From positions 5,958,001-6,022,000 of the forward strand of contig NZ_CP126093.1 in the NCBI RefSeq assembly GCF_030123065.1: 64,000 nt of DNA, read 5' to 3'. The stretch is from Neobacillus sp. DY30. Its GTDB lineage: Bacteria; Bacillota; Bacilli; Bacillales; Cytobacillaceae. The position numbers and the translations under genes were made by a program. This document shows, in pieces, positions 8,188-63,901 of the stretch (positions within the stretch are counted from its first letter, which is position 1; each line of letters begins with the position of its first letter). Under the pieces are notes generated by a model. It was not told the origin of the DNA. It was given only the letters and a program-made list of their open reading frames with translations, and did not search any database.

Positions 8188-8418
8188 TTTGTTTCCTCCT
8201 TGGTATAGGTGTATATCTCCTCGAATTAGGGCTTTCCTATTAAGGATTTCCTACCATTTTACTGATTATGTACGCTCGAGTAAGATAAGTGACCAGTAAA
8301 AGTTCATAAGTAATCATACCAAACAGATTCGTAAAATTCCATTAATGTAGACGAGTTTTTTAAATGTTCACAATGAAAGCGGCAACAGTTTTCGACAATT
8401 ATCTTTTATTAAAAATGA

Positions 8419-8790
8419 CTAATTTGTTTTTTGAGGAATGTGCTTTCTTACCGCTGCACGTATATCATCAATATCAAACGGCTTCGCAAAATGTGTGATT
8501 GCTCCAAGATCCCGCGCTTCCTGAATCATATCCAGCTCCCCGTAAGCGGTCATAATAATCACGCGGATATCTGGGTCAATGACCTTCATTCTTTTTAAAA
8601 TTTCAATACCATCCATACCCGGTATTTTCATATCCAATAGGACGAGATCTGGGTCATGCTTCGTAACAATATCAAGTGCCTGTATTCCATTTGCTGCCTG
8701 AAAGGTTTGATACCCTTCCTTTGAGAATACCTCATTTAATAAAATGCGGATCCCAAATTGGTCGTCAACAATTAAAATTTTCTCTTTCAT
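8419..8790 (-). CDS. spo0F: Sporulation phosphorelay response regulator Spo0F
   Basis: Single-domain response regulator that accepts phosphate from the sporulation kinases and passes it to Spo0B. The 123-residue product has the acidic pair Asp9-Asp10 in ILIVDDQ, the phosphoacceptor Asp53 in [13 protein letters not shown], the conserved Thr in IIMTAYG and Lys in HFAKPFD. There is no output domain, as expected. It is nearly identical in pattern to B. subtilis Spo0F. A sigma-H-like promoter with an overlapping Spo0A box precedes it. Confidence 0.96.
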
Positions 8791-8850
8791 AACTCCACCT
8801 CTTCCACCCTAATTTTATCTATAAATGATTCCTAATTCTTCCACTAAATA

Positions 8851-8879
8851 ATCTTCGACATTTCTATTAAAAATCCTCT
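8851..8879 (-). promoter_or_regulatory. Predicted sigma-H promoter with Spo0A box for spo0F
   Basis: Read on the minus strand, AGAGGATTT (8871-8879) and GTCGAAGAT (8851-8859) are 11 nt apart, close to the sigma-H consensus RNAGGAWWW-N11/12-RNNGAATWW. TGTCGAA at 8854-8860 matches the Spo0A box TGNCGAA and overlaps the -10. Control of spo0F by sigma-H and Spo0A is known in B. subtilis; use of this site is inferred. Confidence 0.6.
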
Positions 8880-8905
8880 ATTTTGTTTGAGGTATTTTAT
8901 GGTAA

Positions 8906-8933
8906 TTGTCTTTTGATTTCAAAAGGCTATAAT
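8906..8933 (+). promoter_or_regulatory. Predicted sigma-A promoter for ywjG
   Basis: TTGTCT (8906-8911) and TATAAT (8928-8933) are 16 bp apart, only about 25 bp before the ywjG start. The -35 is imperfect. Confidence 0.5.
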
Positions 8934-8956
8934 AACCTTGTGAAGGAGGGCTTTAC

Positions 8957-9454
8957 TTGTTAAAAATGTTTACAACCCAATTAACCGGTTTATTTAAACG
9001 AATTGAAGAGAAAGGAGAATTTTCCTTGGAGGACGGTGCCCGCCTGCTAGCCCAGGGACAAAATATTTATGTTGTCGGCTTCAAGGAAATGAAGGGCATT
9101 GAATTTGAAGCATTAGAGGGTGCAGAACCATTAAAAGGTGCTTTAACAAATGTTGACGAAGCGACCAGTGCTGACAGGGTGCTTCTGTTTTCACGGACAT
9201 CCGCTGACCAAGAAGCAGCTGAATTGGCTGGTAAGCTTCATCAAAAAGGAATTCCCTTTGTAGCCGTATCTACATCAATTGAGGACGGAAAACTTGAAGA
9301 GTTAGCTGATGTTTATATTAATTTACAGCTGAAAAAGGGGTTACTTCCCGATGATTTCGGAAATCGGTATGGTTATCCGTCTTTAATGGCAGCATTGTAT
9401 GTTTATTATGGCTTAAAATTTACAATTGATGAGATTTTAGCAGAATATGAATGA
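8957..9454 (+). CDS. ywjG: DUF2529 family protein YwjG
   Basis: A conserved 165-residue protein of unknown function in bacilli. The fold looks like a Rossmann or SIS-type sugar-phosphate domain, with a VYVVGF-like strand, a short loop and alternating helices, but no catalytic motif is obvious. The start is a TTG 6 nt after AAGGAGGG; the first ATG is three codons later with poorer spacing. It is divergent from spo0F and convergent with pyrG, the B. subtilis arrangement. Confidence 0.85.
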   Translation: MLKMFTTQLTGLFKRIEEKGEFSLEDGARLLAQGQNIYVVGFKEMKGIEFEALEGAEPLKGALTNVDEATSADRVLLFSRTSADQEAAELAGKLHQKGIPFVAVSTSIEDGKLEELADVYINLQLKKGLLPDDFGNRYGYPSLMAALYVYYGLKFTIDEILAEYE

Positions 9455-48784: not shown

Positions 48785-49600
48785 TTAACAGGCGCTTTCG
48801 CTTTTCTCATCCCCCACAGCTTGATAGCCATGCTCTTGGGCCACAAAATCAAGATGAATACTATTTAAATCCAGCAAAGCAGCTGATGGCTTGCTGAGAT
48901 ATTGTCTTGTATCGATCACTTTAATATATCCTGTACACTTGTCACAAACCTGGATTTGGGATGAAGCATCGCCCTCAATGGTCAAGAACTGAATCGTTTT
49001 ATGGTCATCATTGCCACAGTGTGTGCATTCAATCCTTTTTGCGTTCCAATGAGCCAGGCAGCGCGGGCAGGTCATCACCTTTTTCCCTTCATCCTTAAGT
49101 ACAGCAAGTCGTGCAGGCTCACCGCAAACTGGACAGCCAGCCCCAGGAACAGCGTGAGTAATTTCGTGCTGAATTTTCTCTGCCGTTAACTGCAGGTATG
49201 GTCGGAGTGCAGTTTCAGCAAGGAACTGCGGAATCCATTCTTCCAATTCATTTTCTTCAGCGAAATTTGTAAAATAAACACTGTTAAATGAAAAAGCTTC
49301 GTCAATCCAGCGAATGGCTGTTTCTTCGTTTAATAGACCGCTTACTCTCGCAAGTTTTGTTTCCCGGTCAGGGTTATTTTTGCTTAAAAGCTTATTTATC
49401 TCCTCTATCCACTGTTGGAATAGTGAAATTTCAAAATTAATAGACGCTAATGCCGCCGCAGGCACCCCTGCTGACATGGCTACTTTATCTAGGTTCGGTA
49501 TAATTGATTCTGAATCAATACTCTCTTTCCAATTCGCTTGAAGTGCTATAATTTCCTTCTGTAAATTCTGATATTCTTTTGAAACAACGGATTTTTTCAT
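48785..49600 (-). CDS. fdhE: Formate dehydrogenase accessory protein FdhE
   Basis: Zinc-ribbon-like protein needed for maturation of respiratory formate dehydrogenase. The 271-residue protein has four CxxC pairs: CPVC, CPRC, CTHC and CDKC. MKKSVVSKEYQNLQKEI was chosen as start behind GAGGTG; ten further in-frame codons upstream have no site. The last codons (EKSESAC) are written in sequence resembling the end of the family 2 repeat, suggesting a repeat insertion altered the C-terminus. Confidence 0.9.
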   Translation of the reverse strand: MKKSVVSKEYQNLQKEIIALQANWKESIDSESIIPNLDKVAMSAGVPAAALASINFEISLFQQWIEEINKLLSKNNPDRETKLARVSGLLNEETAIRWIDEAFSFNSVYFTNFAEENELEEWIPQFLAETALRPYLQLTAEKIQHEITHAVPGAGCPVCGEPARLAVLKDEGKKVMTCPRCLAHWNAKRIECTHCGNDDHKTIQFLTIEGDASSQIQVCDKCTGYIKVIDTRQYLSKPSAALLDLNSIHLDFVAQEHGYQAVGDEKSESAC

Positions 49601-49628
49601 TGTGCACCTCTTTTTAAATTTATAAAGC

Positions 49629-49656
49629 AATGGCTGTCTTATTACAGACAGCCATT
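49629..49656. other. Intercistronic stem-loop between fdnI and fdhE
   Basis: Perfect AATGGCTGTCT and AGACAGCCATT arms around a 6-nt loop. There is no T run on the minus strand, so partial termination or mRNA end protection is more likely than full termination. Confidence 0.65.
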
Positions 49657-49679: not shown

Positions 49680-50417
49680 TTACGCGCCTTTTTTCTTATT
49701 CTTGTTCGGACTAGTTGGCTTTTTTGGATTTCCATTTGCGTCAATATCAGGGAAGTTACCTTTTGCAACTTCTTCATCATACCAATCTGGATAGTGTTCT
49801 TTAGCCCACCAAGCAGGTACTTCTCCCGTGATAACACCTGAATATCCAGGTTTAGAGTTTTTGTGAATAACAGATAGATAAACATGTCCTACGACTACCG
49901 CTATTGCAAGGCCAAAACCAACATTGTGCAGTAAATATCCCCATTGGACTACAGCTCTAGGGAAAAATTGCGGGAACCACATTGGAAAGCCTGAACCGAT
50001 AATTAAAATCGCCGTGACAATTTGGATGATTGAGTTAATCTTTTCACCAGCGTTAAAGAATGTTTGCCTTACGTGCTTAAAATTAAAACCGAATAGTTCC
50101 TTTACGAATTCAGTAAAGAACTCCAGGTCGCGCTTCTTCCAAGTAACAAGCTCCTTCATCCAAAGCTTAAAGCCTTTAAAATCAAAGATTACCCAGATAA
50201 GCGTTGGGGATATAAACGCTACTGCGAATATTCTGTGCAGCAACCGTGCACCTTCGGGACCGCCAAGTACCGGATATAACCAGTCAAAAAACTCTGTGTA
50301 CATCGGCAAGGCTGTAATATAAAGTGCGAAGAAAGAAATAGCGTTAACAGCATGTGCCCAAACAAATGCCTTCGAAAAACGTCTTACTTTTACTGTCGAC
50401 TTTTGAGGTTTACTCAT
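49680..50417 (-). CDS. fdnI: Formate dehydrogenase cytochrome b subunit
   Basis: Diheme cytochrome b that passes electrons from the iron-sulfur subunit to quinone. The 245-residue protein has about four membrane segments with heme-ligand histidines in VWAHAVNAISFF, LLHRIFAVAF, LLHNVGFGLA and GHVYLSVIH, and a Lys/Asn/Pro-rich C-terminal tail. The ATG at 50417 follows GGAGGTG and overlaps the end of fdnH by 8 nt. Confidence 0.92.
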   Translation of the reverse strand: MSKPQKSTVKVRRFSKAFVWAHAVNAISFFALYITALPMYTEFFDWLYPVLGGPEGARLLHRIFAVAFISPTLIWVIFDFKGFKLWMKELVTWKKRDLEFFTEFVKELFGFNFKHVRQTFFNAGEKINSIIQIVTAILIIGSGFPMWFPQFFPRAVVQWGYLLHNVGFGLAIAVVVGHVYLSVIHKNSKPGYSGVITGEVPAWWAKEHYPDWYDEEVAKGNFPDIDANGNPKKPTSPNKNKKKGA

Positions 50418-51240
50418 GGTGTTCACCTCCGTCTTCGTTTTTACCGTTCTTTTTCTTACTTATAATCGTATTCGTAATGAAAGCTCCGACAACCGCCATT
50501 GTAGTTGCCCCAATCATCATCTTACCAATTGGCTGTGCATAGTCTTTCCAAATTACAGCAGATGTAGGTACTTTTGGATTTTCAGGTAATCCGTATACAG
50601 ATGGTTTTTCAGCTAATACATAAACAGTATGTGTACCGCCTACACCTTGTGGATTATAAACCTGTGCATTTGGATAACGATCCTTAATTTCCTTTACACG
50701 CTTTTCAGCCTTCGCAACCATTTCAGCCTTGTCGCCGAACTCCATTGCACCTGTATGACAGGTTGTAACACATGCAGGCTGTAAGCCTTCCTCCAAACGG
50801 TCTGTACACATTGTACATTTATTTGCTTTACGGTATTTGTCGCCATTTTTATCAACGTATTCCTTAAGAGAAATCACTTCAAATGGACAGTTATTTACAC
50901 AGTATCCGCAGCCAACGCACTTCTCATGGTCAATCACTACCGTACCAAACTCAGTGTAGCTGATAGCATTCTCTGGACATACCTTTTCGCAGGCAGCATC
51001 GGTACAGTGCATACAAGCGGAGTGACGGAATAGGTAATCCAGGCCGCCTTTAGAATTTTCATGCTCAATATATTGCAATACATTCCAAGTATCTGCAGTT
51101 GTTTTTGCATGTGATTGAGCACTGCCTAGGAAATCCTGCTGTTCTGCCGGAAGGTCATTCCAGTTTTTACAGGCAACCATACAAGCACGGCAACCATCAC
51201 ATTTGGTTACGTCGACAAATTTTACATATTCAGTAGCCAT
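50410..51240 (-). CDS. fdnH: Formate dehydrogenase iron-sulfur subunit
   Basis: Electron transfer subunit with four [4Fe-4S] clusters. The 276-residue protein shows CDGCRACMVAC, CMHCTDAACEKVC, CVGCGYCVNNC and CTMC...CVTTC, and one C-terminal membrane anchor (MMIGATTMAVVGAFITNTII). There is no signal peptide of its own, as expected for a subunit co-exported with FdnG. It starts 3 bp after the stop of fdnG, behind GGAGGG. Confidence 0.95.
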   Translation of the reverse strand: MATEYVKFVDVTKCDGCRACMVACKNWNDLPAEQQDFLGSAQSHAKTTADTWNVLQYIEHENSKGGLDYLFRHSACMHCTDAACEKVCPENAISYTEFGTVVIDHEKCVGCGYCVNNCPFEVISLKEYVDKNGDKYRKANKCTMCTDRLEEGLQPACVTTCHTGAMEFGDKAEMVAKAEKRVKEIKDRYPNAQVYNPQGVGGTHTVYVLAEKPSVYGLPENPKVPTSAVIWKDYAQPIGKMMIGATTMAVVGAFITNTIISKKKNGKNEDGGEHHE

Positions 51241-51242
51241 TG

Positions 51243-54227
51243 TTATGCCCTCCTTACGTCACAGAGGAATGCTTTGTACTCTGGAATGGTTGTATTGGCA
51301 TCCCCGATATGAGGAGTCAGGCGGTTTGCTGTATCCCCAGTTGCGAATCCTTTATAACCAAAATGCCATGGCATTCCGATTTGGTGTACCTTTTTACCGT
51401 CGATGGTATGAGGTTTAAAACGTTTTGTCACCATTGCATAAGCGTTTACTTCACCACGGGCTGATGTGACAATGACTTTATCCTTATTTTTAATACCTTT
51501 TTCTTTTGCTAACTCTTCGCTCATTTCAATATACATATGAGGTACAAGTTCTGATAACCATTCCTGGTTACGAGTCATCGTTCCAGACTGCCAGTGTTCA
51601 CTTACACGGTAAGTGGTAGCAACAATCGGGAAGTCTGCCTTGAAGCCGCGCTTGTTGAATTCACCTTCAAATAGTTGAATGGTTGGGTTAATTTCTTGGC
51701 TTGAGAATTTATTCTTAGTTGGACTTTCAAACGGCTCATAGTGTTCTGGGAATGGCCCATCATTTAAAGTTGGTGCATACAGTCCGCCCAAACCGTCATT
51801 CATCATGATGAATGGATCTTCAAAGCCTGGATCTCCAGGTTTTCTGACTGCTACGAAGTCCGGTACGTCCACCCCAGTCCATTTACCAAGTGCTGCATCA
51901 TACCAAATAACTGCTTTGTCTTTGTTGTATGGTTTTCCACTTGGATCACAAGAAGCACGGTTGTAAAGAATACGGCGGTTCATCGGCCAAGCATATGACC
52001 AGTTTAGATATAAGCTCATGCCGGTATCTTTTTTGTCACGGTTTTTCGCGCGATTCTTTCCTTCTTCCGGATAGAATCCACAATAAATCCAGTTTCCGGA
52101 GCAGGTTGAACCGTCATCTTTCAAGTTACCAAAGCCTGCAATCAGTTTACCTGTATTCACGTCATAACCGTTGATTTCTTTACATACTAAGTCAATGTCA
52201 GGGTGATGTCCTTCACCATAATTCCAATATAATGCATTGATTGGAGCTGCAGATGGGCCAGCTTCATTTTTGTAAAGAGCCTTAATTCTTGTTGCAAGTT
52301 CATGGATGATTTCTAAGTCTGCTTTTGATTCACCCAGTGGCTTAATTGCCTGCCAGCGGTATTGCATCCAACGGGCACTGTTTGATACGCTGCCTTCTTT
52401 TTCATAAGAAGAACATGCAGGAAGAAGGAATACTTCTGTATTAACCTTAGAAGGATCGTTGCCAGCTTCTTTTTGCCAGAAAGCTGATGTTTCGGTTTCC
52501 CAAAGGTCAACTGCTACTAACCATTTCAAGTTGCCTAATGCTTCTTTCTCCTTACCAGCGTTTGGTCCGCCGACTACTGGATTTGTTCCAAATAGGAATG
52601 TTCCTTCTAGAGTACCTTCATACATTGCCTTGAAAAGGTTAATGTGTGAGTAGTTCTTGTTGCCTTTTGGCAGGTATTGATAACAGAATTCGTTATCTTT
52701 TGTTGCATTTGGTCCATACCATGCTTTTAACAAGCTGACGATGAATTTAGGCTTGTTGCTCCAATAACCTGTTTTAGGAGTCTCTTTTTCTAAGTGTCCT
52801 GCTAAAGTAGCATTTAAAGGATCTTTAGAAGTTGGAGCATTTAAGTAACCTGTTAAGTTACCATATAATAATCCAAAATCTGTTGAACCTTGGACGTTAG
52901 ACTCTCCACGCATTGCTTGCAAACCGCCGCCAGGTATGCCTATGTTACCTAATAGAAGCTGTATGATTGCGAATGCACGTACGTTTTGTGTTCCAACTGT
53001 ATGCTGGGTTGTTCCCATAGCGTATAAAATCGTTCCTGCCTTACCTACTTGACCAGTTGCACAGAACGCTTTATAAACTTTTAATAAATCTTCTTTTGGT
53101 GTTCCTGTAACACTTACTACTGTGTCAATATCGTAGCGTGAGTAATGCTTTTTCATTAATTGGAAAACAGATCTAGGATGTTCTAAAGTGAAGTCTTTAA
53201 CTAGCTTTCCTTCAGCATCTTTCTCGAATGCCCACTGTGTTTTATCGTAAGAGCGCTTATCTTCCATATATCCAGAGAATAAGCCATCCTCGAATTTAAA
53301 GCTGTCTTTTACGATACCGCTTGCATTTGTATATTTAGCAACATACTCTTTGTGATAAAGATTATTTTCAAGCGCATATTTGATCATCCCGCCCATAAAA
53401 GCGATATCTGTACCAGAGCGTAATGGTGCATAAATATCTGACATTGACGATGTTCTTGTATAACGAGGGTCAACGCTCACAATCTTGCCGCCATTCTCTT
53501 TCGCTTTCGTTAACCATCTAAAACTGATTGGATGGTTTTCTGCAGGGTTCGCACCCATAATCAACGCACAATCTGTATACTGCAGATCATTCCAACTGTT
53601 AGTCATTGCTCCACGACCAAATGAAGGTGCCAGACCGGCAACCGTAGAACTATGTCATATTCGTGCCTGGTGCTCTAAATAGGTGACACCAAGCCCTCTC
53701 ATCATTTTTGAAAGCAGGTAAGTCTCTTCGTTATCAAGAGCTGCTCCGCCGATGCTTGCTATCGCCTCGGTCTTATTTACTGTCATGCCGTCTTCTGAGA
53801 CAACAAATGTTTTATCACGTGTTTCTTTTGTACGCTTGGCAATGGTTTCATACATCCATTCCCAGTCTTTTTCTACCCACTTATCACTGCCTGGTGCACG
53901 ATAAAGCGGTTTCTTAAATCGTTTTTCAGAGGTATATAATTGTCTGATGGTTGTACCCTTGCTGCATAGTTTTCCTTCGTTAATTGGGTTATCCGGATCC
54001 CCTTCCGTATAAACCACTGTGTTGTCCTTTGTATGGACTAAAATTCCGCAACCAACGCCGCAAAAACAGCAAATGGTTGGCGTTACAGTTGATTTGGCAA
54101 TTTTAAATTCTTTTGTTGCGGCTTGGGCTTTTTTTGTATCAAAGCCTAATTCAACAACAGCCAAAGTTGCCGCAGTAGCTCCTGACAATTTCAAAAATTG
54201 CCGGCGGTTTAAGTTGATTTCAACCAT
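51243..54227 (-). CDS. fdnG: Formate dehydrogenase large subunit, selenocysteine-containing
   Basis: Molybdenum bis-MGD enzyme that oxidises formate outside the membrane. The full product is 994 residues read through an in-frame UGA at 53655-53657 (residue 191), in the context QARI-U-HSSTVAGLAPSFGRGAMTN, the same place as the Sec of E. coli FdnG. The N-terminus has the twin-arginine signal NRRQFLKLSG. The [4Fe-4S] cluster ligands follow (CCFCGVGCG...C). The start MVEIN was chosen because GGAAGGAGAT precedes it; thirteen upstream codons lack a site. SelA, SelB, SelD and tRNA-Sec must be encoded elsewhere; they are not in this window. Confidence 0.93.
53626..53657 (-). promoter_or_regulatory. 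Selenocysteine UGA codon and SECIS stem-loop
   Basis: On the minus strand the UGA (53657-53655) is followed after exactly 11 nt by GGTTGCCGGTCTGGCACC (53643-53626). This folds with a bulged U and the apical loop GGTCT. E. coli fdhF has UGA, 11 nt, then GGTTGCAGGTCTGCACC, with the same bulged U and loop. It is therefore a predicted bacterial SECIS element for SelB. Confidence 0.92.
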
Positions 54228-54275
54228 TTTTCTATCTCCTTCCCAGAATTGAATAGAACATCCCATGAAATGCGT

Positions 54276-54428: not shown

Positions 54429-55190
54429 TCAATGCATCTCGACAGCAGGTATTTCCACTAAATCATTTTCAACTCGGCCTGTTGAGGTATAAATATTCGC
54501 CATTTTCCCTCGTAAATAGCCAATTACCTCTATATTTAAGAACTTAGCCAGCTGAACAGCCTGCTTAGTGGCGGCTGTTCTTGATCCAATAACAGGAAAG
54601 CCAAATTTCGCTGCTTTGGAGAGCATTTCATATGAAACCCTTCCGGTTGTTAATAAAACTAACCGTTCAGGCTGCAAACCCATTCGTATGGTGTGGCCAA
54701 TGATCTTATCGACTGCATTGTGCCGCCCAATGTCTTCGCGGACGATGATAGTGCCTGCTTCATCAACAATACAGGCTCCATGCATACCGCCGGTTTCAAG
54801 ATAAAACGGTGAATTTTGAGCAAATTCACATCGTTTTTTTAATAGATAACTCAATTTATAGCTGTGTTCAGACGAAACCTTTTCAAAGTTTTTCACATCT
54901 GTCATCGAGAAAAAAGTAACCCCGCGGCCGCAGCCTGCAGTATAGTGCTTCTTCTTCGTAAACAACTCTTCTTCATTAAAGCCATTCAGAAGTTCAACAT
55001 GAATGGTGCCCATTTCTTCATTTACCGTGATGGACCCAACATCACTCGATCCGTGAATAAATCCTTCAGAAAACAAATATCCATAGGCCCAATCCTCTAA
55101 ATCATGTTTCGTTAGCTGAAATACAGCAATCTCATACCCATTTAAAACCAGAGTAATCGGATATTCATCAGGACATCCTTTGCGGTACAT
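54429..55190 (-). CDS. fdhD: Formate dehydrogenase accessory sulfurtransferase FdhD
   Basis: Transfers sulfur (from IscS in E. coli) to the molybdenum cofactor, which activates formate dehydrogenase. The 253-residue protein has the loop AGCGRGVTFFS with one Cys, where E. coli has a CxxC pair, and the later REDIGRHNAVDKIIG and TTGRVSYEMLSKAAK...SRTAATKQAVQLA motifs of the family. The ATG at 55190 follows AAAGGAGGG. It is the first gene of the block. Confidence 0.94.
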   Translation of the reverse strand: MYRKGCPDEYPITLVLNGYEIAVFQLTKHDLEDWAYGYLFSEGFIHGSSDVGSITVNEEMGTIHVELLNGFNEEELFTKKKHYTAGCGRGVTFFSMTDVKNFEKVSSEHSYKLSYLLKKRCEFAQNSPFYLETGGMHGACIVDEAGTIIVREDIGRHNAVDKIIGHTIRMGLQPERLVLLTTGRVSYEMLSKAAKFGFPVIGSRTAATKQAVQLAKFLNIEVIGYLRGKMANIYTSTGRVENDLVEIPAVEMH

Positions 55191-55665
55191 TGGTTTCCCT
55201 CCTTTCAGGAAATAACCATCTTGGCGTTTCAATTGTAAGGATGATGCCGAACCTTCTCAGCGACATTTATCACAACGAATACCAGATTGAAATGAATCCA
55301 TTATTCTTTTAAATTTTTTTAATAATCTCGACGCCTTCATTTCAGGACTTTGTCAAATCTCAGACAATTTTGTGACAGATTATCGAATTCTTTCTAGTTA
55401 AATGGTTTTAATACTACGATAGAATGGTAAAGGTTTAATATGTAAGCGATTCCATTTAAAAAGTATATCTTTAGTACTATCGTACGATGAGTACTTTTTC
55501 CCTGAAGTAAGATTTATCACATATAACCATTTAATTAGGGTAAAAACAGTTATTTGTCATTTTTCTGACATAATCACTGTGTTTTGTAAAATTTCTACTA
55601 TATTTTCAGGTTTGTTTTATAATAGGAATAGTGAAATTCACCAACTGTTAATAGGAGGAGTACAT
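55191..55665. other. Divergent gap between fdhD and pdxK
   Basis: A 475-bp AT-rich region with no gene seen. It contains the near-palindrome at 55473-55495 within longer AAAAAGTA/TACTTTTT arms, several GTGA/TCAC half-sites (for example near 55371-55376 and 55515-55520) that do not form a full Fnr box, and a TATAAT at 55618-55623 before pdxK without a good -35. Confidence 0.6.
55473..55495. promoter_or_regulatory. 23-bp near-palindrome upstream of fdhD and pdxK
   Basis: AGTACT, then the 10-bp palindrome ATCGTACGAT, then GAGTACT. Symmetry is perfect apart from one inserted base. It could be an operator for either divergent gene; no known binding protein is assigned. Confidence 0.45.
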
Positions 55666-57872: not shown

Positions 57873-58616
57873 TCAATAGGCAGTATTCATCAGTGCACAA
57901 AGCCGGCACATATCAAGGATGATAATTTTCCTCGATTTCATTTCAATGATTCCCTCTTTTTTCAATTTCGAAAACACCCGGCTTACACTTTCCCTCGTGG
58001 TCCCTACGATTGTGGCAAATTCCTGAATCGTCAAAGGAATTTCAATGTTCCATCTCGAGCTGGAGGTATTAAATTTATTCCCCAGCCGCTCTAACGTCTT
58101 TACTGTCTTCGCATAAACATCTAATAACGCCAAATCTCTTAAGGTTGAGGTCATCTCGCGCAGCGAATCACTCATATATTGAATCATTTGTACTGCAAGC
58201 TCGGGATATTCATGAAGCCCCTTCTCTAATTCAAACTTATCTAAATAGAAGAGCTGACCGTCTTGGAGCATGGTGGCAGTCGCTGGATACAACTCTGAGG
58301 TTTTTGAAAATAAACAAGCCTCTGCAAACACATCACCCTTTTGCTTCATACAAACAATGATCTCATTACCACTTTCATCTTGCTTCGTCAGTTTGACGGC
58401 CCCTGTTTGGATAAAAAATACCCCTTTGGCAACATCATTCTCACAAATAACCTGTACTCCTTTTTTAACGGTTAACAGTTGAATTCGTTTGGCGATAAGA
58501 CGAATCGATTTTGCAGATAAATCCTTAAAAATAACAATTTTCCGCAGAAAGTCCTCCATTTTCAACTCTCTCACTCTTCCTAATGGCTGTTCTTCTAACG
58601 CATGTACGGGATTCAT
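57873..58616 (-). CDS. Crp/Fnr family transcription regulator
   Basis: A 247-residue regulator with an N-terminal cyclic-nucleotide-binding-type domain (about 25-145) and a C-terminal winged helix whose recognition helix is TTRESVSRVFSKLKKEG. Glu-Ser-Arg of this helix resembles the Fnr pattern that reads GTGA half-sites. The C-terminus has only two cysteines (DMCRLCALMN), fewer than the three-Cys cluster of B. subtilis Fnr, so iron-sulfur binding is uncertain. It is divergent from the nos operon, whose promoter has a matching site. GAGGAGGGG precedes the ATG. Confidence 0.9.
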   Translation of the reverse strand: MNPVHALEEQPLGRVRELKMEDFLRKIVIFKDLSAKSIRLIAKRIQLLTVKKGVQVICENDVAKGVFFIQTGAVKLTKQDESGNEIIVCMKQKGDVFAEACLFSKTSELYPATATMLQDGQLFYLDKFELEKGLHEYPELAVQMIQYMSDSLREMTSTLRDLALLDVYAKTVKTLERLGNKFNTSSSRWNIEIPLTIQEFATIVGTTRESVSRVFSKLKKEGIIEMKSRKIIILDMCRLCALMNTAY

Positions 58617-58840: not shown

Positions 58841-59284
58841 ATGAAGAAGGCAATTATTAGCTTTGCCATCAGCTTAGTAATTGGTTTTGGCCTTGGATAC
58901 TTAGTGTTTGGTGTCGTTATGGGGGATTCCGATAAACAGCCTCAAGTTGCTCAAACAGAACCAACCGAAGAAACAAGTGGAACGGAAGACCAAAAGGATG
59001 AAGCAAATACTGAAACAGCAACGGTAGATGCCAATAACATTCTTAACAGCAAGGGCTGTCTCGGCTGCCACGCTGTCGATAAACTCGGTTTAAAAGGCGG
59101 GGCTACGGGTCCTGATCTTTCAAAAGCCTTTACTGAAGTTGAAGGAAAGCATGGCAAGCCAATTGATGAATTCTTAAAAGAACCAACGTCAGCAGTTATG
59201 TCGAGCGTAATTGGCGGCAGCCCATTAACAGATGAGGAACGCACACAAATATTAGATATGTTGAAACAAGCATCTGAAAAATAA
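58841..59284 (+). CDS. nosC: Membrane-anchored c-type cytochrome NosC
   Basis: A 147-residue monoheme cytochrome c. One N-terminal membrane segment (about 3-28), an acidic linker rich in Glu, Thr and Asp, and the heme motif CLGCH at about residues 73-77, with a distal Met near the C-terminus (SAVMSSVIGG). It probably passes electrons to NosZ, as in Bacillus nos clusters. AGGAGGGGG precedes the ATG, and nosZ follows after 16 bp. Confidence 0.9.
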   Translation: MKKAIISFAISLVIGFGLGYLVFGVVMGDSDKQPQVAQTEPTEETSGTEDQKDEANTETATVDANNILNSKGCLGCHAVDKLGLKGGATGPDLSKAFTEVEGKHGKPIDEFLKEPTSAVMSSVIGGSPLTDEERTQILDMLKQASEK

Positions 59285-59300
59285 AAAGGTGGTGGAATAG

Positions 59301-61169
59301 ATGAAGAAATGGGTTCCAATTGCTTCTGGATTACTAGCAGGTTTTGTAGCAGCAACGATTTCCTTTGCTGATTTTTCAAAGAGTACAAACACTCAAGTTG
59401 CTTCAAGCAGTACGAAAAGTGACGCAGAAAAGGTTTATGTTCCGTTCGGTGAAAAAGATGATTACTACTTATTTGCGTCAGGCGGCCACTCTGGCCAAAT
59501 GTTTATCTATGGTGTTCCATCCATGCGTCATATCCGTACAGTACCAGTATTCTCACAAGACTCTGCAACTGGATATGGATTTGACGAGCATTCTAAAAAG
59601 ATGATGGGCGGCTACACTTGGGGCGACCTTCATCACCCTGCATTCTCAGAAACAAAAGGTGACTACGACGGTAAATACATGTTTGCCACAGATGTCGGAA
59701 ACAGCCGTGCAGCAGCCATGGATTTAAAAACATTTACGGTAAAAGACATTATTAACGTACCAAATACAAGCGGCCCACACTGTGCGGCGTTCGTTACCGA
59801 AAATACAGAGTACATGTTCCTGCCAACACGTTTCGCGGTTCCAATTGGCTCTGAATACAAGCCTTTAGATGAATACAGCCAGCAGTACCGCGGTGTAATG
59901 TCGGCCGTAACGTTTGATGAAACACAAGAAAAATTAAACATTGCCTACCAAGTTGCCCTTCCACCATGGTCTTACGACTTATCAGATGCTGGTAAGAAGA
60001 GTTCAGCAGATTGGGCAGTTATGACCACGTACAACACTGAAGAAGCAACTACTAATCTAGAAATTAACGCCTCACAGGCTGACCGTGACTTCATTGTTCT
60101 TTTTAACTGGAAAGAGCTAGAGAAAATGGTCGCAGACGGACAGTATGATGAAGTTACCGGCCAGAAAATGATTTTCCCTGAAAAGCATAAAGGCGGTATT
60201 TACCTTGTTCCTGTTGCGAAATCACCACATGGTGTCGACGTAACGCCAGATGGTAAACACTTTATCGCTTCAGGTAAGCTTGCACCGGCGATGACCGTAT
60301 TCTCTTTTGAAAAAGCATTTGAAGCCATTGAAAAACAAGATTTCGCTGGCGAACGTAACGGTATTCCGATTATCAACTACGACTCTATTATGGAAAGAGA
60401 AGTTAATCCTGAAAACGCACTTGGACCGCTTCACACTCAGTTTGATGATAAAGGTATGGCCTACACCACGATGTTCATTTCTTCGGAAATCGTGAAATGG
60501 GATCCAAAAACAGGCGAAACATTAGACCGCGTACCTGTTCAATATTCACCAGGGCACTCTGTAGCAGCTGAAGGCGACACGGTTTCACCTGATGGAAAGT
60601 GGCTGATTGCATTGAACAAAATTGCAAAAGACAGCTATTTATCCGTTGGACCTTCACATCCTGAGTCTATGCAGCTAATTGATATCAGCGGCAAGATGAA
60701 AGTGATTCAATCTTCACCTGTAAACCCTGAGCCGCACTATGCTCAAATTATTAAAGCAGATAAGATTAAGACCATTGAAGTGTATGAGAAGGATGAAAGC
60801 AATAAGCTTGCGACTTATAAGCAAGAAGACGCAAAAATTGTCCGCAATGGAAATGAAGTTCATGTCTACGGTATCGCCATGCGCTCGAAGTTTATCTTTG
60901 ACGCAAAGGCAAAACGCCCTGATGTGATTGAAGTTAATCAAGGAGATAAGGTGTTTATCCACTTAACCAATACGGATTTTGATGAGGATATTACCCATGG
61001 ATTTGCCATCAACAGCTATAACTTAAACATTGAAGTTCAGCCTGGCCAAACAAATACACTCGAATTTACTGCAGACAAAGCAGGAACCTTCCCGCTATAT
61101 TGTACGAACTTCTGCTCTGCACTGCACCAAGAAATGACCGGCTACTTCCTTGTGAAACCTAAGAACTAA
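59301..61169 (+). CDS. nosZ: Nitrous-oxide reductase, clade II
   Basis: Reduces N2O to N2 outside the membrane. The 622-residue protein has a Sec-type N-terminal hydrophobic segment rather than a twin-arginine signal, as in clade II (atypical) NosZ. The beta-propeller supplies the CuZ histidines (DLHHP, SGPHC, SPHGVD, GPLHT, PGHS, EPHY), and the C-terminal cupredoxin has the CuA motif CTNFCSALHQEM. The operon and the absence of nosR also fit clade II. An AAGGTGGTGG site precedes the ATG. Confidence 0.96.
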   Translation: MKKWVPIASGLLAGFVAATISFADFSKSTNTQVASSSTKSDAEKVYVPFGEKDDYYLFASGGHSGQMFIYGVPSMRHIRTVPVFSQDSATGYGFDEHSKKMMGGYTWGDLHHPAFSETKGDYDGKYMFATDVGNSRAAAMDLKTFTVKDIINVPNTSGPHCAAFVTENTEYMFLPTRFAVPIGSEYKPLDEYSQQYRGVMSAVTFDETQEKLNIAYQVALPPWSYDLSDAGKKSSADWAVMTTYNTEEATTNLEINASQADRDFIVLFNWKELEKMVADGQYDEVTGQKMIFPEKHKGGIYLVPVAKSPHGVDVTPDGKHFIASGKLAPAMTVFSFEKAFEAIEKQDFAGERNGIPIINYDSIMEREVNPENALGPLHTQFDDKGMAYTTMFISSEIVKWDPKTGETLDRVPVQYSPGHSVAAEGDTVSPDGKWLIALNKIAKDSYLSVGPSHPESMQLIDISGKMKVIQSSPVNPEPHYAQIIKADKIKTIEVYEKDESNKLATYKQEDAKIVRNGNEVHVYGIAMRSKFIFDAKAKRPDVIEVNQGDKVFIHLTNTDFDEDITHGFAINSYNLNIEVQPGQTNTLEFTADKAGTFPLYCTNFCSALHQEMTGYFLVKPKN

Positions 61170-61179
61170 AATGGATGGT

Positions 61180-61210
61180 AAGGGTATCAATTGTTTCAAT
61201 TGGTACCCTT
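61180..61210 (+). other. Stem-loop between nosZ and nosB
   Basis: AAGGGTATCAATT and AATTGGTACCCTT arms (13 bp with one G-U pair) and a short loop, about 10 bp after the nosZ stop, with no T run. It is probably an mRNA 3'-end stabiliser that favours nosZ expression. Confidence 0.65.
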
Positions 61211-61236
61211 CTCCGTTTAGAAAGGACTTGTTTTAC

Positions 61237-61803
61237 ATGAAAGCAAAAAGATTATCTCTCCTTTCATCGATACTGATTGCCCTTGCTGCCGTTCTTGTCG
61301 GACTTTCATTACTCTTTCCTTGGTGGCAGATGATTTTCTTTGCTCCACAGTATCCAGAAGGATTAAATATTATCGTTTATCCTAATAAACTTGAGGGCGA
61401 AATTGATATTGTTAATGGCCTGAACCACTACATTGGAATGGAAAACTTCAGCGAAGAAAATTTCCCAGAACTAGCATACTTGTCATATTTGGTAATTGGT
61501 TTAGCAATAATCACACTGTTAACAGCCATTCTAAGAAAAAAATCAATGTTATATGGATTGATCGGTTTATTTATCATTGGCGGCAGTCTCGGTGTGTGGG
61601 ACCTTTCAAGTGCGCTTCGTAAATTTGGCACCAACTTAAGCCCAACTGCACCGATTAAAATAGACCCTTTTGTTCCACCGCTATTAGGGCATAATACAGT
61701 TGCAAACTTTGTCACTGAAAGTATTCTTGGGTACGGTGCATATTGCCTTATTGCTGCATTTCTATTATTACTGATTCCGTTATGGAAGGACCGAACAAGA
61801 TGA
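61237..61803 (+). CDS. nosB: NosB membrane protein
   Basis: A 188-residue membrane protein with about four hydrophobic segments (LSLLSSILIALAAVLVGLSL near the start, then three in the second half). It lies between nosZ and nosD, the place of nosB in clade II clusters, and its role there is not established. The ATG at 61237 was chosen behind AAAGGAC; a start 22 codons upstream would lie inside the stem-loop. It overlaps nosD by 4 nt. Confidence 0.85.
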   Translation: MKAKRLSLLSSILIALAAVLVGLSLLFPWWQMIFFAPQYPEGLNIIVYPNKLEGEIDIVNGLNHYIGMENFSEENFPELAYLSYLVIGLAIITLLTAILRKKSMLYGLIGLFIIGGSLGVWDLSSALRKFGTNLSPTAPIKIDPFVPPLLGHNTVANFVTESILGYGAYCLIAAFLLLLIPLWKDRTR

Positions 61804-63140
61804 AAAAACTACTGCTCTTTCTATTCATTTTCTCTATCACTATTCTTGTATATCCTGAGAAAAATAGTGCTGCCGAAAACTTGCAAGCCATGATCGACAG
61901 CTTAGAAGAAGGAGCAGTACTCCAACTTGAAAATAAAACATATGAGGGCAATATTGTCATTAATAAATCATTGACTCTAGTTGGCACTATTAACACGGTG
62001 ATAAAGGGAGATGGAACGGGAAATGTCATTTCCATTAAAGCACCTAACGTGACGATCAGAGAGCTTAGCGTCACAAATAGCAGCATGGACCGTAATTCTG
62101 CTGAGGAGTATGCGGGGATTAAGATTCATACCAACGGGAATATAGTTGAGAACGTTAAGATTTCCGATTCCTTTCACGGAATTTATTTAAGTCAGGCACA
62201 TGAAAATAAAATTAATCATGTTGAGATTAAAGGTAAGGGCAAGGGAGAAATTGCCGCACAGGGTAATGGAATTCATATCTATTACTCCAATCATAACCTG
62301 TTAACACATAACACCATAGAAGGCACACGTGATGGCATGTTTTTTGACTACGGCAACAAAAATGAAAGCTATCAAAATAAGATTAGTCATACACGGTACG
62401 GCCTGCATTACATGTACTCCGACGAGAATATTTTTAAGAATAATACCTTTACGATGAATACGGGCGGCGCTGCGGTCATGAATTCGAACCACTTAGTTTT
62501 AGAAGATAACCAATTTATCGTAAACTATGGCAACCAATCTTTCGGATTACTGCTGCTGCAAGCCAATGATAATCAAATTAAAAACAATACGTTCTACATG
62601 AACCAAAGAGGCATTTACATCGATCAGGCCACTCGAAACAATATGGAAGGCAATAAAATCTCCCAAAACCAGATCGGGATTGAACTTTGGGCAAGTTCCA
62701 ATGAACAAATTTTTTCTAAAAACCTAATTACTGAAAATACAATTCCCGCTGTTACCATCGGTGGAACTGGTGAAAACAACTTCTGGAGTCATAATGGCAA
62801 AGGAAACGATTGGGGAAGAGCTTTCCCGCTCACCGATTTAAACCAAGATCGCATTGGGGACTTTCCTATAACGTATCACTCTTCTTTATATCTGCTGTTA
62901 GAAGAACAAGAATTATCTTATTTATTTTTAAAAAGTCCTGCACTGCCTATCTTTGAAAAAATGAATGCAGTCTTGATGGACGAAAAGATTATGTTTTATG
63001 ACCCTCACCCGCTGGCCGCTGCTAAAGGCAATAACCATTTGGTGTTAATAGCGGCTTTAGTGCTGGCCGCAGTGTTAATTTTACTAAAAGGGAGACATTT
63101 ACTATGCATTACATTTGGAAGGAATGGAAGGAAAACATAA
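61800..63140 (+). CDS. nosD: NosD copper-centre maturation protein
   Basis: Right-handed beta-helix protein needed to assemble the CuZ centre of NosZ. The 446-residue protein has an N-terminal signal peptide (MKKLLLFLFIFSITILVYP), a central region of beta-helix repeats rich in N, G and I (IEGTRDGMFFDYGNKNES and similar), and a C-terminal membrane anchor (VLIAALVLAAVLILL). The start overlaps the nosB stop as ATGA. Confidence 0.9.
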   Translation: MKKLLLFLFIFSITILVYPEKNSAAENLQAMIDSLEEGAVLQLENKTYEGNIVINKSLTLVGTINTVIKGDGTGNVISIKAPNVTIRELSVTNSSMDRNSAEEYAGIKIHTNGNIVENVKISDSFHGIYLSQAHENKINHVEIKGKGKGEIAAQGNGIHIYYSNHNLLTHNTIEGTRDGMFFDYGNKNESYQNKISHTRYGLHYMYSDENIFKNNTFTMNTGGAAVMNSNHLVLEDNQFIVNYGNQSFGLLLLQANDNQIKNNTFYMNQRGIYIDQATRNNMEGNKISQNQIGIELWASSNEQIFSKNLITENTIPAVTIGGTGENNFWSHNGKGNDWGRAFPLTDLNQDRIGDFPITYHSSLYLLLEEQELSYLFLKSPALPIFEKMNAVLMDEKIMFYDPHPLAAAKGNNHLVLIAALVLAAVLILLKGRHLLCITFGRNGRKT

Positions 63141-63901
63141 GAGGAAAAGGCTTATGGCTCGCTTTAAGCATTATCGTTCTGATTTCAATTAGTATCTTGT
63201 TTCGTTCCACTGCCCTTTCATTTGATAAAGGCTTCTATGTGCTCTTGATTAACTTGTTTGATACCATTATTTACTTTATTCCAATCCTCTGTTTATTTAT
63301 CGGAGCCTTTTCGATTTTTCAAGAAAAGGAACAAAAGACGCTAATCATGCTGCTGACTAAGAAAGACAGCTATGCGAGTTTTTTACTGCGAAAGAGCCTA
63401 GGACTCTATACCGTTGTCCTTGTTCCCATCTTAGTCTGGTTTTTTCTCTATTTATTATTGCTTAAGTTTAACTTCCAGCTTGATATGAAGGCATATTTTA
63501 TCTTTATTTTAGCCATTGTGACCCTGTCGCTCGTGTTCCTGCAAATGGGAGCAGCCATCGGAAGCTTTAGCCGTTCCAGAATGCAGATTATTGGGTATAC
63601 CATATTTATCTGGTTTTACTTTTTCTTCTTGCATGACTTTCTTTTACTATCACTATTGCCTGACGTTACCTATGTAAATGTAAAAGTATTTTCAGCCGGC
63701 TACTTCTTAAATCCATTGCAATCTGTACGAATGTTCCTTGAAACAGGCATGGGTGTTTACTCCTTCGGTCACATGTCAAGGCTTCTCCAAGCCTTCATGT
63801 GGACAAAGCCTGTATTCTTTTTAATCGGAAATCTAGTATTTTGGTTCATCACTTCTATTGCAGCAGGTATTATTTTCCACCGTAAGGAGGGCTTTGAATG
63901 A
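63104..63901 (+). CDS. nosY: ABC transporter permease NosY
   Basis: Membrane subunit of the Nos ABC transporter that, with NosD and NosF, supplies sulfur or copper-centre building blocks to NosZ. The 265-residue protein has about six hydrophobic segments and the ABC-2 permease layout with FQEKEQKTLIMLLTKK after the second. It overlaps nosD by 37 nt and nosF by 4 nt, so translation is coupled. AAAGGGAG precedes the ATG. Confidence 0.9.
   Translation: MHYIWKEWKENIRGKGLWLALSIIVLISISILFRSTALSFDKGFYVLLINLFDTIIYFIPILCLFIGAFSIFQEKEQKTLIMLLTKKDSYASFLLRKSLGLYTVVLVPILVWFFLYLLLLKFNFQLDMKAYFIFILAIVTLSLVFLQMGAAIGSFSRSRMQIIGYTIFIWFYFFFLHDFLLLSLLPDVTYVNVKVFSAGYFLNPLQSVRMFLETGMGVYSFGHMSRLLQAFMWTKPVFFLIGNLVFWFITSIAAGIIFHRKEGFE

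What the first reader, a model, noticed from the sequence alone, without database searches (positions are those of the whole stretch)
53626..53657. Formate dehydrogenase selenoprotein with a near-copy of the E. coli fdhF SECIS
The fdnG frame is broken only by an in-frame UGA at the Sec position of FdnG. Exactly 11 nt later lies GGTTGCCGGTCTGGCACC, with the bulged U and GGTCT loop of the E. coli element at the same distance. Both the UGA and the RNA structure are conserved while the flanking codons differ. Selenocysteine use is uncommon in Bacillaceae, so standard gene calling would report two broken genes. Basis: the stem-loop is seen; SelB recognition rules are known from E. coli; use here is inferred.
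Basis: partly seen in the sequence, partly recalled or inferred. Interest (0 to 1): 0.8.

Follow-up and report, generated by a model that had tools for sequence, protein, structure and literature searches.

The report
Selenocysteine formate dehydrogenase in a Neobacillus
A bacillus appears to read a stop codon as the rare amino acid selenocysteine in its formate dehydrogenase, using a small RNA hairpin and a complete decoding machinery elsewhere in its genome; this is a textbook system, but it is common rather than rare in this bacterial family and is often stored in databases as a shortened gene.

Summary
On the minus strand an in-frame TGA (53655-53657) interrupts fdnG (TIGR01553, 1266 bits) at the Sec position, and the hairpin GGTTGCCGGTCTGGCACC (53626-53643) starts exactly 11 nt later. 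The same genome has selA, selB, selD and tRNA-Sec, and two more predicted selenoprotein genes, SelD and a second FDH. The stated refuting test therefore fails.

The hairpin is under selection. TGA is kept in 78 of the 80 named homologues examined; the hairpin codons are nearly frozen synonymously; both Cys homologues among the 80 have lost it; distant elements covary.

Two corrections. The element is closer to the fdnG type (Rfam SECIS_3, 58.2 bits, gathering 63) than the fdhF type (SECIS_2, 21.3 bits). Sec is common in this lineage: 166 of 193 held genomes of the window's family have selA, selB and tRNA-Sec together.

Extra: a Cys clade nested among Bacillaceae Sec enzymes; the hairpin is gone in both of its genes whose DNA was seen.

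Sec insertion itself is inferred. A new member of a known kind, of modest interest.

The parts
51243..54227 (-). fdnG, formate dehydrogenase-N alpha subunit, predicted selenoprotein; 994 residues with Sec at codon 191 when started at ATG 54227, which follows an AAGGAG ribosome-binding site (the mechanical ORF starts at 54266)
   Evidence: TIGR01553 1266.3 bits (cut-off 814.2), TAT signal PF10518 25.6 (cut-off 22.7), molybdopterin domains; best solved relatives by sequence are chains named selenocysteine-containing FDH alpha (such as 8cm4), with E. coli 1kqf also matched
53655..53657 (-). in-frame UGA, Sec codon (residue 204 of the mechanical ORF)
   Evidence: TGA in 78 of 80 named homologues
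53644..53654 (-). 11-nt spacer between UGA and hairpin
   Evidence: same length in E. coli fdnG, fdoG and fdhF
53626..53643 (-). SECIS hairpin GGUUGCCGGUCUGGCACC: stem GGU-GCC/GGC-ACC, bulged U, GGUCU loop
51249..51254 (-). AGGAGG inside the last codons of fdnG, the likely ribosome-binding site of fdnH; the only two of the 206 control codons as frozen as the hairpin (codon 220, left out of the control, is also frozen: GCA in 74 of 76)
50410..51240 (-). fdnH-like iron-sulfur beta subunit
   Evidence: TIGR01582 233.6 bits (below cut-off 334.7), Fer4 domains
49680..50426 (-). fdnI-like cytochrome b gamma subunit
   Evidence: PF01292 60.3 bits over cut-off; TIGR01583 81.8 bits (below cut-off 115.85)
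48785..49630 (-). FdhE-like accessory protein
   Evidence: PF24860 33.0 bits over cut-off 27; TIGR01562 51.7 bits (below cut-off 187.65)
54429..55232 (-). FdhD sulfurtransferase
   Evidence: PF02634 223.9 bits; TIGR00129 173.8 bits over cut-off 140.9

Best explanation
This is a normal bacterial selenoprotein gene: a TAT-exported, respiratory formate dehydrogenase (FDH-N type alpha subunit) of a bacillus whose FdnG is nearest to that of Neobacillus niacini strains. Seryl-tRNA-Sec (selC) is turned into Sec-tRNA-Sec by SelA with selenophosphate from SelD. SelB carries it to the ribosome and, through its C-terminal winged helices, binds the hairpin that starts 11 nt after the UGA, so the UGA is read as Sec instead of stop. 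The enzyme would oxidise formate and pass electrons via FdnH and FdnI to the quinone pool. Shown here: gene, UGA, hairpin, complete set of sel genes, conservation, covariation, co-occurrence. Inferred, from what is known of E. coli: Sec insertion itself, SelB binding and enzyme activity.
For: UGA at the Sec position of a TIGR01553 protein. selB 354 bits (cut-off 242) with SelB-wing_2 and SelB-wing_3 domains; its C-terminus matches SelB chains 1wsu, 1lva and 2ply. tRNA-Sec 63.3 bits (gathering 47), called tRNA-SeC(tca) by ARAGORN. selA 566 bits; selD 403 bits with its own in-frame TGA. A second FDH has UGA + 11 nt + hairpin; the exact 15-mer GTTGCCGGTCTGGCA occurs only in these two genes of the 6.14 Mb genome. 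TGA in 78 of 80 named homologues; synonymous freeze. Hairpin better than 95% of synonymous variants in 55 of 57 distinct Sec elements and 2 of 13 Cys. Core pairs: 28 double-change cells against 12.3 in shuffles, 0 of 2000 as high. Of 121 family genomes with an FdnG relative, 117 have selA + selB + tRNA-Sec and 0 have none of the three.
Against: No direct evidence of translation. Hairpin free energy is unremarkable against dinucleotide shuffles. SECIS_3 falls 4.8 bits short of its gathering score. Across distant homologues the fixed register pairs fully (six pairs) in only 12 of 57 distinct Sec elements and in all four core pairs in 34 of 57. The slid control (+1) also gives 23 double-change cells, against 28 observed, though with fewer pairs formed (53% against 74%), probably because some elements pair in a shifted register; the shuffles do not keep relatedness. 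For the window's own element, 3% of uniform synonymous variants fold as well (0.4% with the gene's own codon usage). Four of 121 FdnG-bearing genomes lack at least one of the three sel genes, all in assemblies 66-88% complete.
Confidence: 0.96

Rival explanations
1. The TGA is a sequencing error for TGT/TGC or a pseudogene mutation; the enzyme would be a Cys enzyme or dead.
For: Two of 80 named homologues do carry TGT or TGC at this site.
Against: TGA in 78 of 80 named homologues from many assemblies; hairpin codons frozen synonymously; the two Cys homologues among the 80 have lost the hairpin.
Confidence: 0.01
2. The UGA works as a real stop: 203 aa and 787 aa polypeptides are made separately, as many database entries suggest.
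For: 114 of the 120 best database entries listed are 725-789 aa long, as expected for pieces that begin after the UGA (checked by reading 2 of them).
Against: The break at residue 204 falls inside the molybdopterin domain (residues 116-659), while the best solved relatives are single chains named selenocysteine-containing; co-occurrence with sel genes (117 of 121) and the hairpin would be unexplained.
Confidence: 0.01
3. The UGA is read by SelB-independent near-cognate suppression (Trp or Cys inserted), with the hairpin only a pause element.
For: Not excluded by any sequence test here.
Against: selA, selB and tRNA-Sec track the gene across the family, and the hairpin has the loop letters of the E. 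coli fdhF element.
Confidence: 0.02

Closest known systems
E. coli fdnG/fdoG SECIS (compared directly; Rfam RF01989 SECIS_3 is the matching model)
   Same: Orthologous gene and site, 11-nt spacing, and the same six-pair register with U bulge and 5-nt loop can be drawn.
   Different: Loop GGUCU instead of AGUCU; stem letters differ at several places; 58.2 bits against a gathering score of 63.
E. coli fdhF SECIS (Rfam RF01988 SECIS_2 consensus resembles it)
   Same: 11-nt spacing, bulged U, GGUCU letters in the loop.
   Different: The window element is one nucleotide longer on the 3' side with an extra C-G pair; 21.3 bits against gathering 70.
Moorella thermoacetica SelB with its SECIS (chains 1wsu, 1lva, 2ply)
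   Same: The window genome's SelB C-terminus matches these chains by sequence (E about 5e-9). That they are the Moorella protein, and that the Moorella fdhA hairpin shares the UUGCCGGUCUGGCA core, is recalled and comes from no call.
   Different: A distant match (39.7 bits); the Moorella RNA could not be checked because the paper is not held.
Formate dehydrogenase O alpha subunit / selenocysteine-containing, Mesobacillus selenatarsenatis (name carried by database entry P0038)
   Same: Same protein family; a source already named it selenocysteine-containing.
   Different: Stored as a 787-aa piece that begins after the UGA.

Membership tests
Formate dehydrogenase-N alpha subunit (TIGR01553) | Full-length HMM match over curated cut-off | tested here: met
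   1266.3 bits against 814.2, residues 19-1005
Formate dehydrogenase-N alpha subunit (TIGR01553) | Twin-arginine export signal | tested here: met
   PF10518 25.6 bits against 22.7; NRRQFLK motif
Formate dehydrogenase-N alpha subunit (TIGR01553) | Adjacent FDH-N beta and gamma subunits | tested here: inconclusive
   The best NCBIfam matches are TIGR01582 (233.6, cut-off 334.7) and TIGR01583 (81.8, cut-off 115.85): the expected families, but below their curated cut-offs
Bacterial selenoprotein with SECIS | In-frame UGA aligned with Cys or Sec of homologues | tested here: met
   205 TGA, 8 TGT, 8 TGC at the site in 221 loci, which are not independent and include repeats of the same genes
Bacterial selenoprotein with SECIS | Hairpin about 11 nt downstream, kept by selection | tested here: met
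Bacterial selenoprotein with SECIS | selA, selB, selC, selD in the genome | tested here: met
Bacterial selenoprotein with SECIS | Se found in the purified protein | not testable with these tools
   no laboratory data
Rfam RF01989 SECIS_3 | Score at or above gathering (63 bits) | tested here: not met
   58.2 bits, E 1.6e-13; works like it but is not a formal member
Rfam RF01988 SECIS_2 (fdhF type) | Score at or above gathering (70 bits) | tested here: not met
   21.3 bits

The most novel reading that the evidence does not exclude
In Bacillaceae the Sec enzyme is ancestral and one Sec-to-Cys switch founded a derived clade (5 distinct proteins seen). Both of its genes whose DNA was seen have lost the hairpin, and the residue at codon 210, inside the hairpin, changed from Ala (78 of 78 Sec homologues) to Pro (5 of 5 Cys), as if released from the RNA's coding constraint. 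In both assemblies where such a Cys gene was located, a Sec copy is present too, so the pair could be a selenium-replete/selenium-poor isozyme switch, and the RNA element would have shaped the protein sequence next to the active site.
Probability: 0.3. Interest if true: 0.45.

Novelty: new member of a known kind. Interest (0 to 1): 0.28.

Why it matters
It points to a practical error: in the best 120 database entries the Sec form of FDH-N appears only as shortened proteins (114 of 120, judged by length and coverage), so formate respiration in these bacilli is easily missed. It also shows the selenocysteine genes as a near-constant trait of one family of bacilli (166 of 193 held genomes), with one genus (13 of 13 held genomes) lacking them. 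The nested Cys clade gives a natural comparison for how a SECIS decays once it is not needed. The mechanism itself is known.

Tried and rejected
Rfam at gathering threshold over the whole window gave no SECIS; only the permissive local scan did. Single-sequence folding z-scores were weak. For the genome's other two predicted selenoproteins the synonymous-variant test is weaker: 5.6% of variants fold as well for the FdhF-like hairpin, and 6.8% or 16.8% (two stretches) for SelD; their Sec status rests on the UGA position and, for the FDH, on the shared 15-mer. In one search two Cys genes, L211 and L237, fold better than 95% of their synonymous variants, against the trend. The alignment used wrong coordinates for one row (L110) and was not used. 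The place at 3108555 found had no locus and was not examined. Sequencing error, true stop and plain suppression were considered and rejected (see rivals).

Literature: searches joining selenocysteine or selenoprotein with Bacillales, Bacillaceae or Neobacillus found 0 papers, 1 tick-flora paper seen in the listing only and 0 papers. Searches listed general selenium, translation and other papers, of which I saw only the listings and starts of abstracts unless named here. Passages (not whole texts) were seen of PMC1794560 (its Table 2 counts 3 Bacillales selenoproteins of 3 families; its abstract reports Sec-to-Cys switches mostly in FDH and SelD), PMC13188914, PMC9312934, PMC11881835, PMC1242214, PMC5029168 and PMC4513850. 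No claim is made that the family-wide extent is unreported; supplementary tables were not open.

Full report
What is there. On the minus strand the two table-11 ORFs 53655-54266 and 51243-53606 are one reading frame broken only by TGA at 53655-53657. Read as U it gives a 1007-residue protein; the better start is ATG 54227 with an AAGGAG site, which puts Sec at codon 191. The protein is formate dehydrogenase-N alpha (TIGR01553, 1266 bits, cut-off 814), with a TAT signal and molybdopterin domains. Its best solved relatives by sequence are FDH alpha chains named selenocysteine-containing; E. coli FdnG 1kqf follows. Downstream lie fdnH-like, fdnI-like and fdhE-like genes, then ORFs that look from their translations (no search run) like molybdopterin-cofactor genes; fdhD lies upstream.

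The hairpin. Eleven nucleotides after the UGA starts GGUUGCCGGUCUGGCACC, which folds as GGU(U)GCC/GGC-ACC with a GGUCU loop. E. coli K-12 fdnG, fdoG and fdhF have the same spacing; the register fits fdnG/fdoG, while the loop letters are those of fdhF. Rfam scores it 58.2 bits for SECIS_3 (gathering 63, E 1.6e-13) and 21.3 bits for SECIS_2 (gathering 70). So it is fdnG-like and formally just below the family threshold; 'near-copy of fdhF' is only loosely right. Free energy alone is not exceptional.

Selection on the RNA. The scan of named genomes found 323 relatives and kept the best 80; at the Sec site 78 have TGA, one TGT and one TGC. Over the 78, the seven codons that carry the hairpin have a mean top-codon share of 0.967, against 0.513 for 206 other conserved, at least fourfold-degenerate codons (codons 205-226 left out; among those, codon 220 is also frozen at 0.974). 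Only two of the 206 reach 0.95; from the low-entropy list they are codons 1005-1006, AGGAGG, the likely ribosome-binding site of fdnH. They hold 57 distinct Sec and 13 distinct Cys elements. 55 of 57 Sec elements fold better than 95% of their uniform synonymous variants, against 2 of 13 Cys (L211, L237; Mann-Whitney p 6e-7). For the window's own element the share of variants that fold as well is 0.4% with the gene's own codon usage and 3% with uniform usage. The four core pairs show 28 double-change cells against 12.3 in shuffles (0 of 2000 as high) and 74% pairing against 63% (0 of 2000). The count of pair types is less clear (10 against 7.1; 33 of 2000 as high), and the +1 slid control has 23 double-change cells with 53% pairing. 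All four core pairs form in 34 of 57 elements, and some of the rest pair in a register shifted by one.

Machinery. The window's 6.14 Mb single-contig genome (listed as 100% complete, 7.16% contamination) has one match over cut-off each for selB (354 bits; winged-helix domains; C-terminus like chains 1wsu, 1lva, 2ply), tRNA-Sec (63.3 bits), selA (566 bits) and selD (403 bits, with its own in-frame TGA). A second FDH (692-codon open frame) has TGA + 11 nt + CGTTGCCGGTCTGGCAAC; the 15-mer GTTGCCGGTCTGGCA occurs exactly only in these two genes. That gives three predicted selenoproteins; I ran no genome-wide search for others. Of five other located molybdopterin-enzyme relatives, four have Cys and one another residue at the site.

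Spread. Of the window's family 193 genomes are held: selA is over cut-off in 172, tRNA-Sec in 171 (stricter filters used) and selB in 170. All three occur in 166, none in 19, a mixture in 8. Of 121 genomes with an FdnG relative (E <= 1e-100), 117 have all three and none has none; the 4 mixed ones are 66-88% complete. 49 genomes have all three without such an FdnG. One genus (13 of 13 held genomes) lacks all three. Across the phylum 98 of 398 sampled genomes have an FdnG relative. An older survey listed only 3 Bacillales selenoproteins (PMC1794560, passages).

Annotation. Of the 120 best database proteins listed (of 7825 over threshold), 114 are 725-789 aa, cover 73-78% of the query and lack the N-terminal Fe4S4 domain in their precomputed Pfam list; two of them were read and begin after the UGA. 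Six are full length, and all six carry Cys. One entry is already named selenocysteine-containing (P0038).

Cys copies. In an 82-row tree (thinned from 115; quick method, midpoint root) the Bacillaceae Cys proteins (7 rows, 5 distinct) form one clade (SH-aLRT 100) nested among Bacillaceae Sec proteins; a sixth, P0112, is separate. Both genes seen as DNA, L087 and L089, have lost the hairpin and lie in assemblies that also hold a Sec copy (L098, L097); one of these is a metagenome bin, and in the other the Sec copy is on a 6.7 kb contig, so mixing is possible. All five proteins have Pro where the 78 Sec homologues have Ala at codon 210. Over all 221 loci the 16 Cys loci come from 14 genomes, of which 8 also have a Sec copy in the set (by contig and handle). 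Sec-to-Cys change in FDH is a known event type (PMC1794560, abstract passage).

Verdict. Real, well supported, mechanistically ordinary: a new member of a known kind.

Noticed in passing
L017:8103-8198 and 8272-9291 (G000:C1 near 2104102): tRNA-Sec is followed directly by a disrupted frame that looks like a tyrosine recombinase (judged by eye), as if the tRNA gene had served as a mobile-element attachment site.
   Followed up: no
G000:C1 2.10, 2.54, 3.39, 4.09 and 6.01 Mb: sel genes and selenoprotein genes are scattered around the chromosome; only selA and selD lie near each other (divergent, about 1 kb apart with one small ORF between).
   Followed up: partly
L262:6624-8681 minus: Second predicted Sec formate dehydrogenase (FdhF-like), near two transporter-like ORFs and a sensor-kinase-like ORF; its hairpin can pair as a perfect six-pair stem without the U bulge.
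   Followed up: partly
L211: A Cys (TGT) homologue that still has a good SECIS-like hairpin, possibly a remnant of a Sec ancestor or a recent switch (L237 also folds well).
   Followed up: partly
G165-G177 (genus g20 of the family): All 13 held genomes of this genus lack selA (over cut-off), selB and tRNA-Sec, a lineage-wide absence inside a Sec-using family.
   Followed up: partly
window 58841-63901: A nitrous oxide reductase gene (TIGR04246, 891 bits) with ORFs that look like a cytochrome c, NosD and a membrane permease lies close to the FDH operon, with a CRP/FNR-type regulator (57873-58616) between them.
   Followed up: partly
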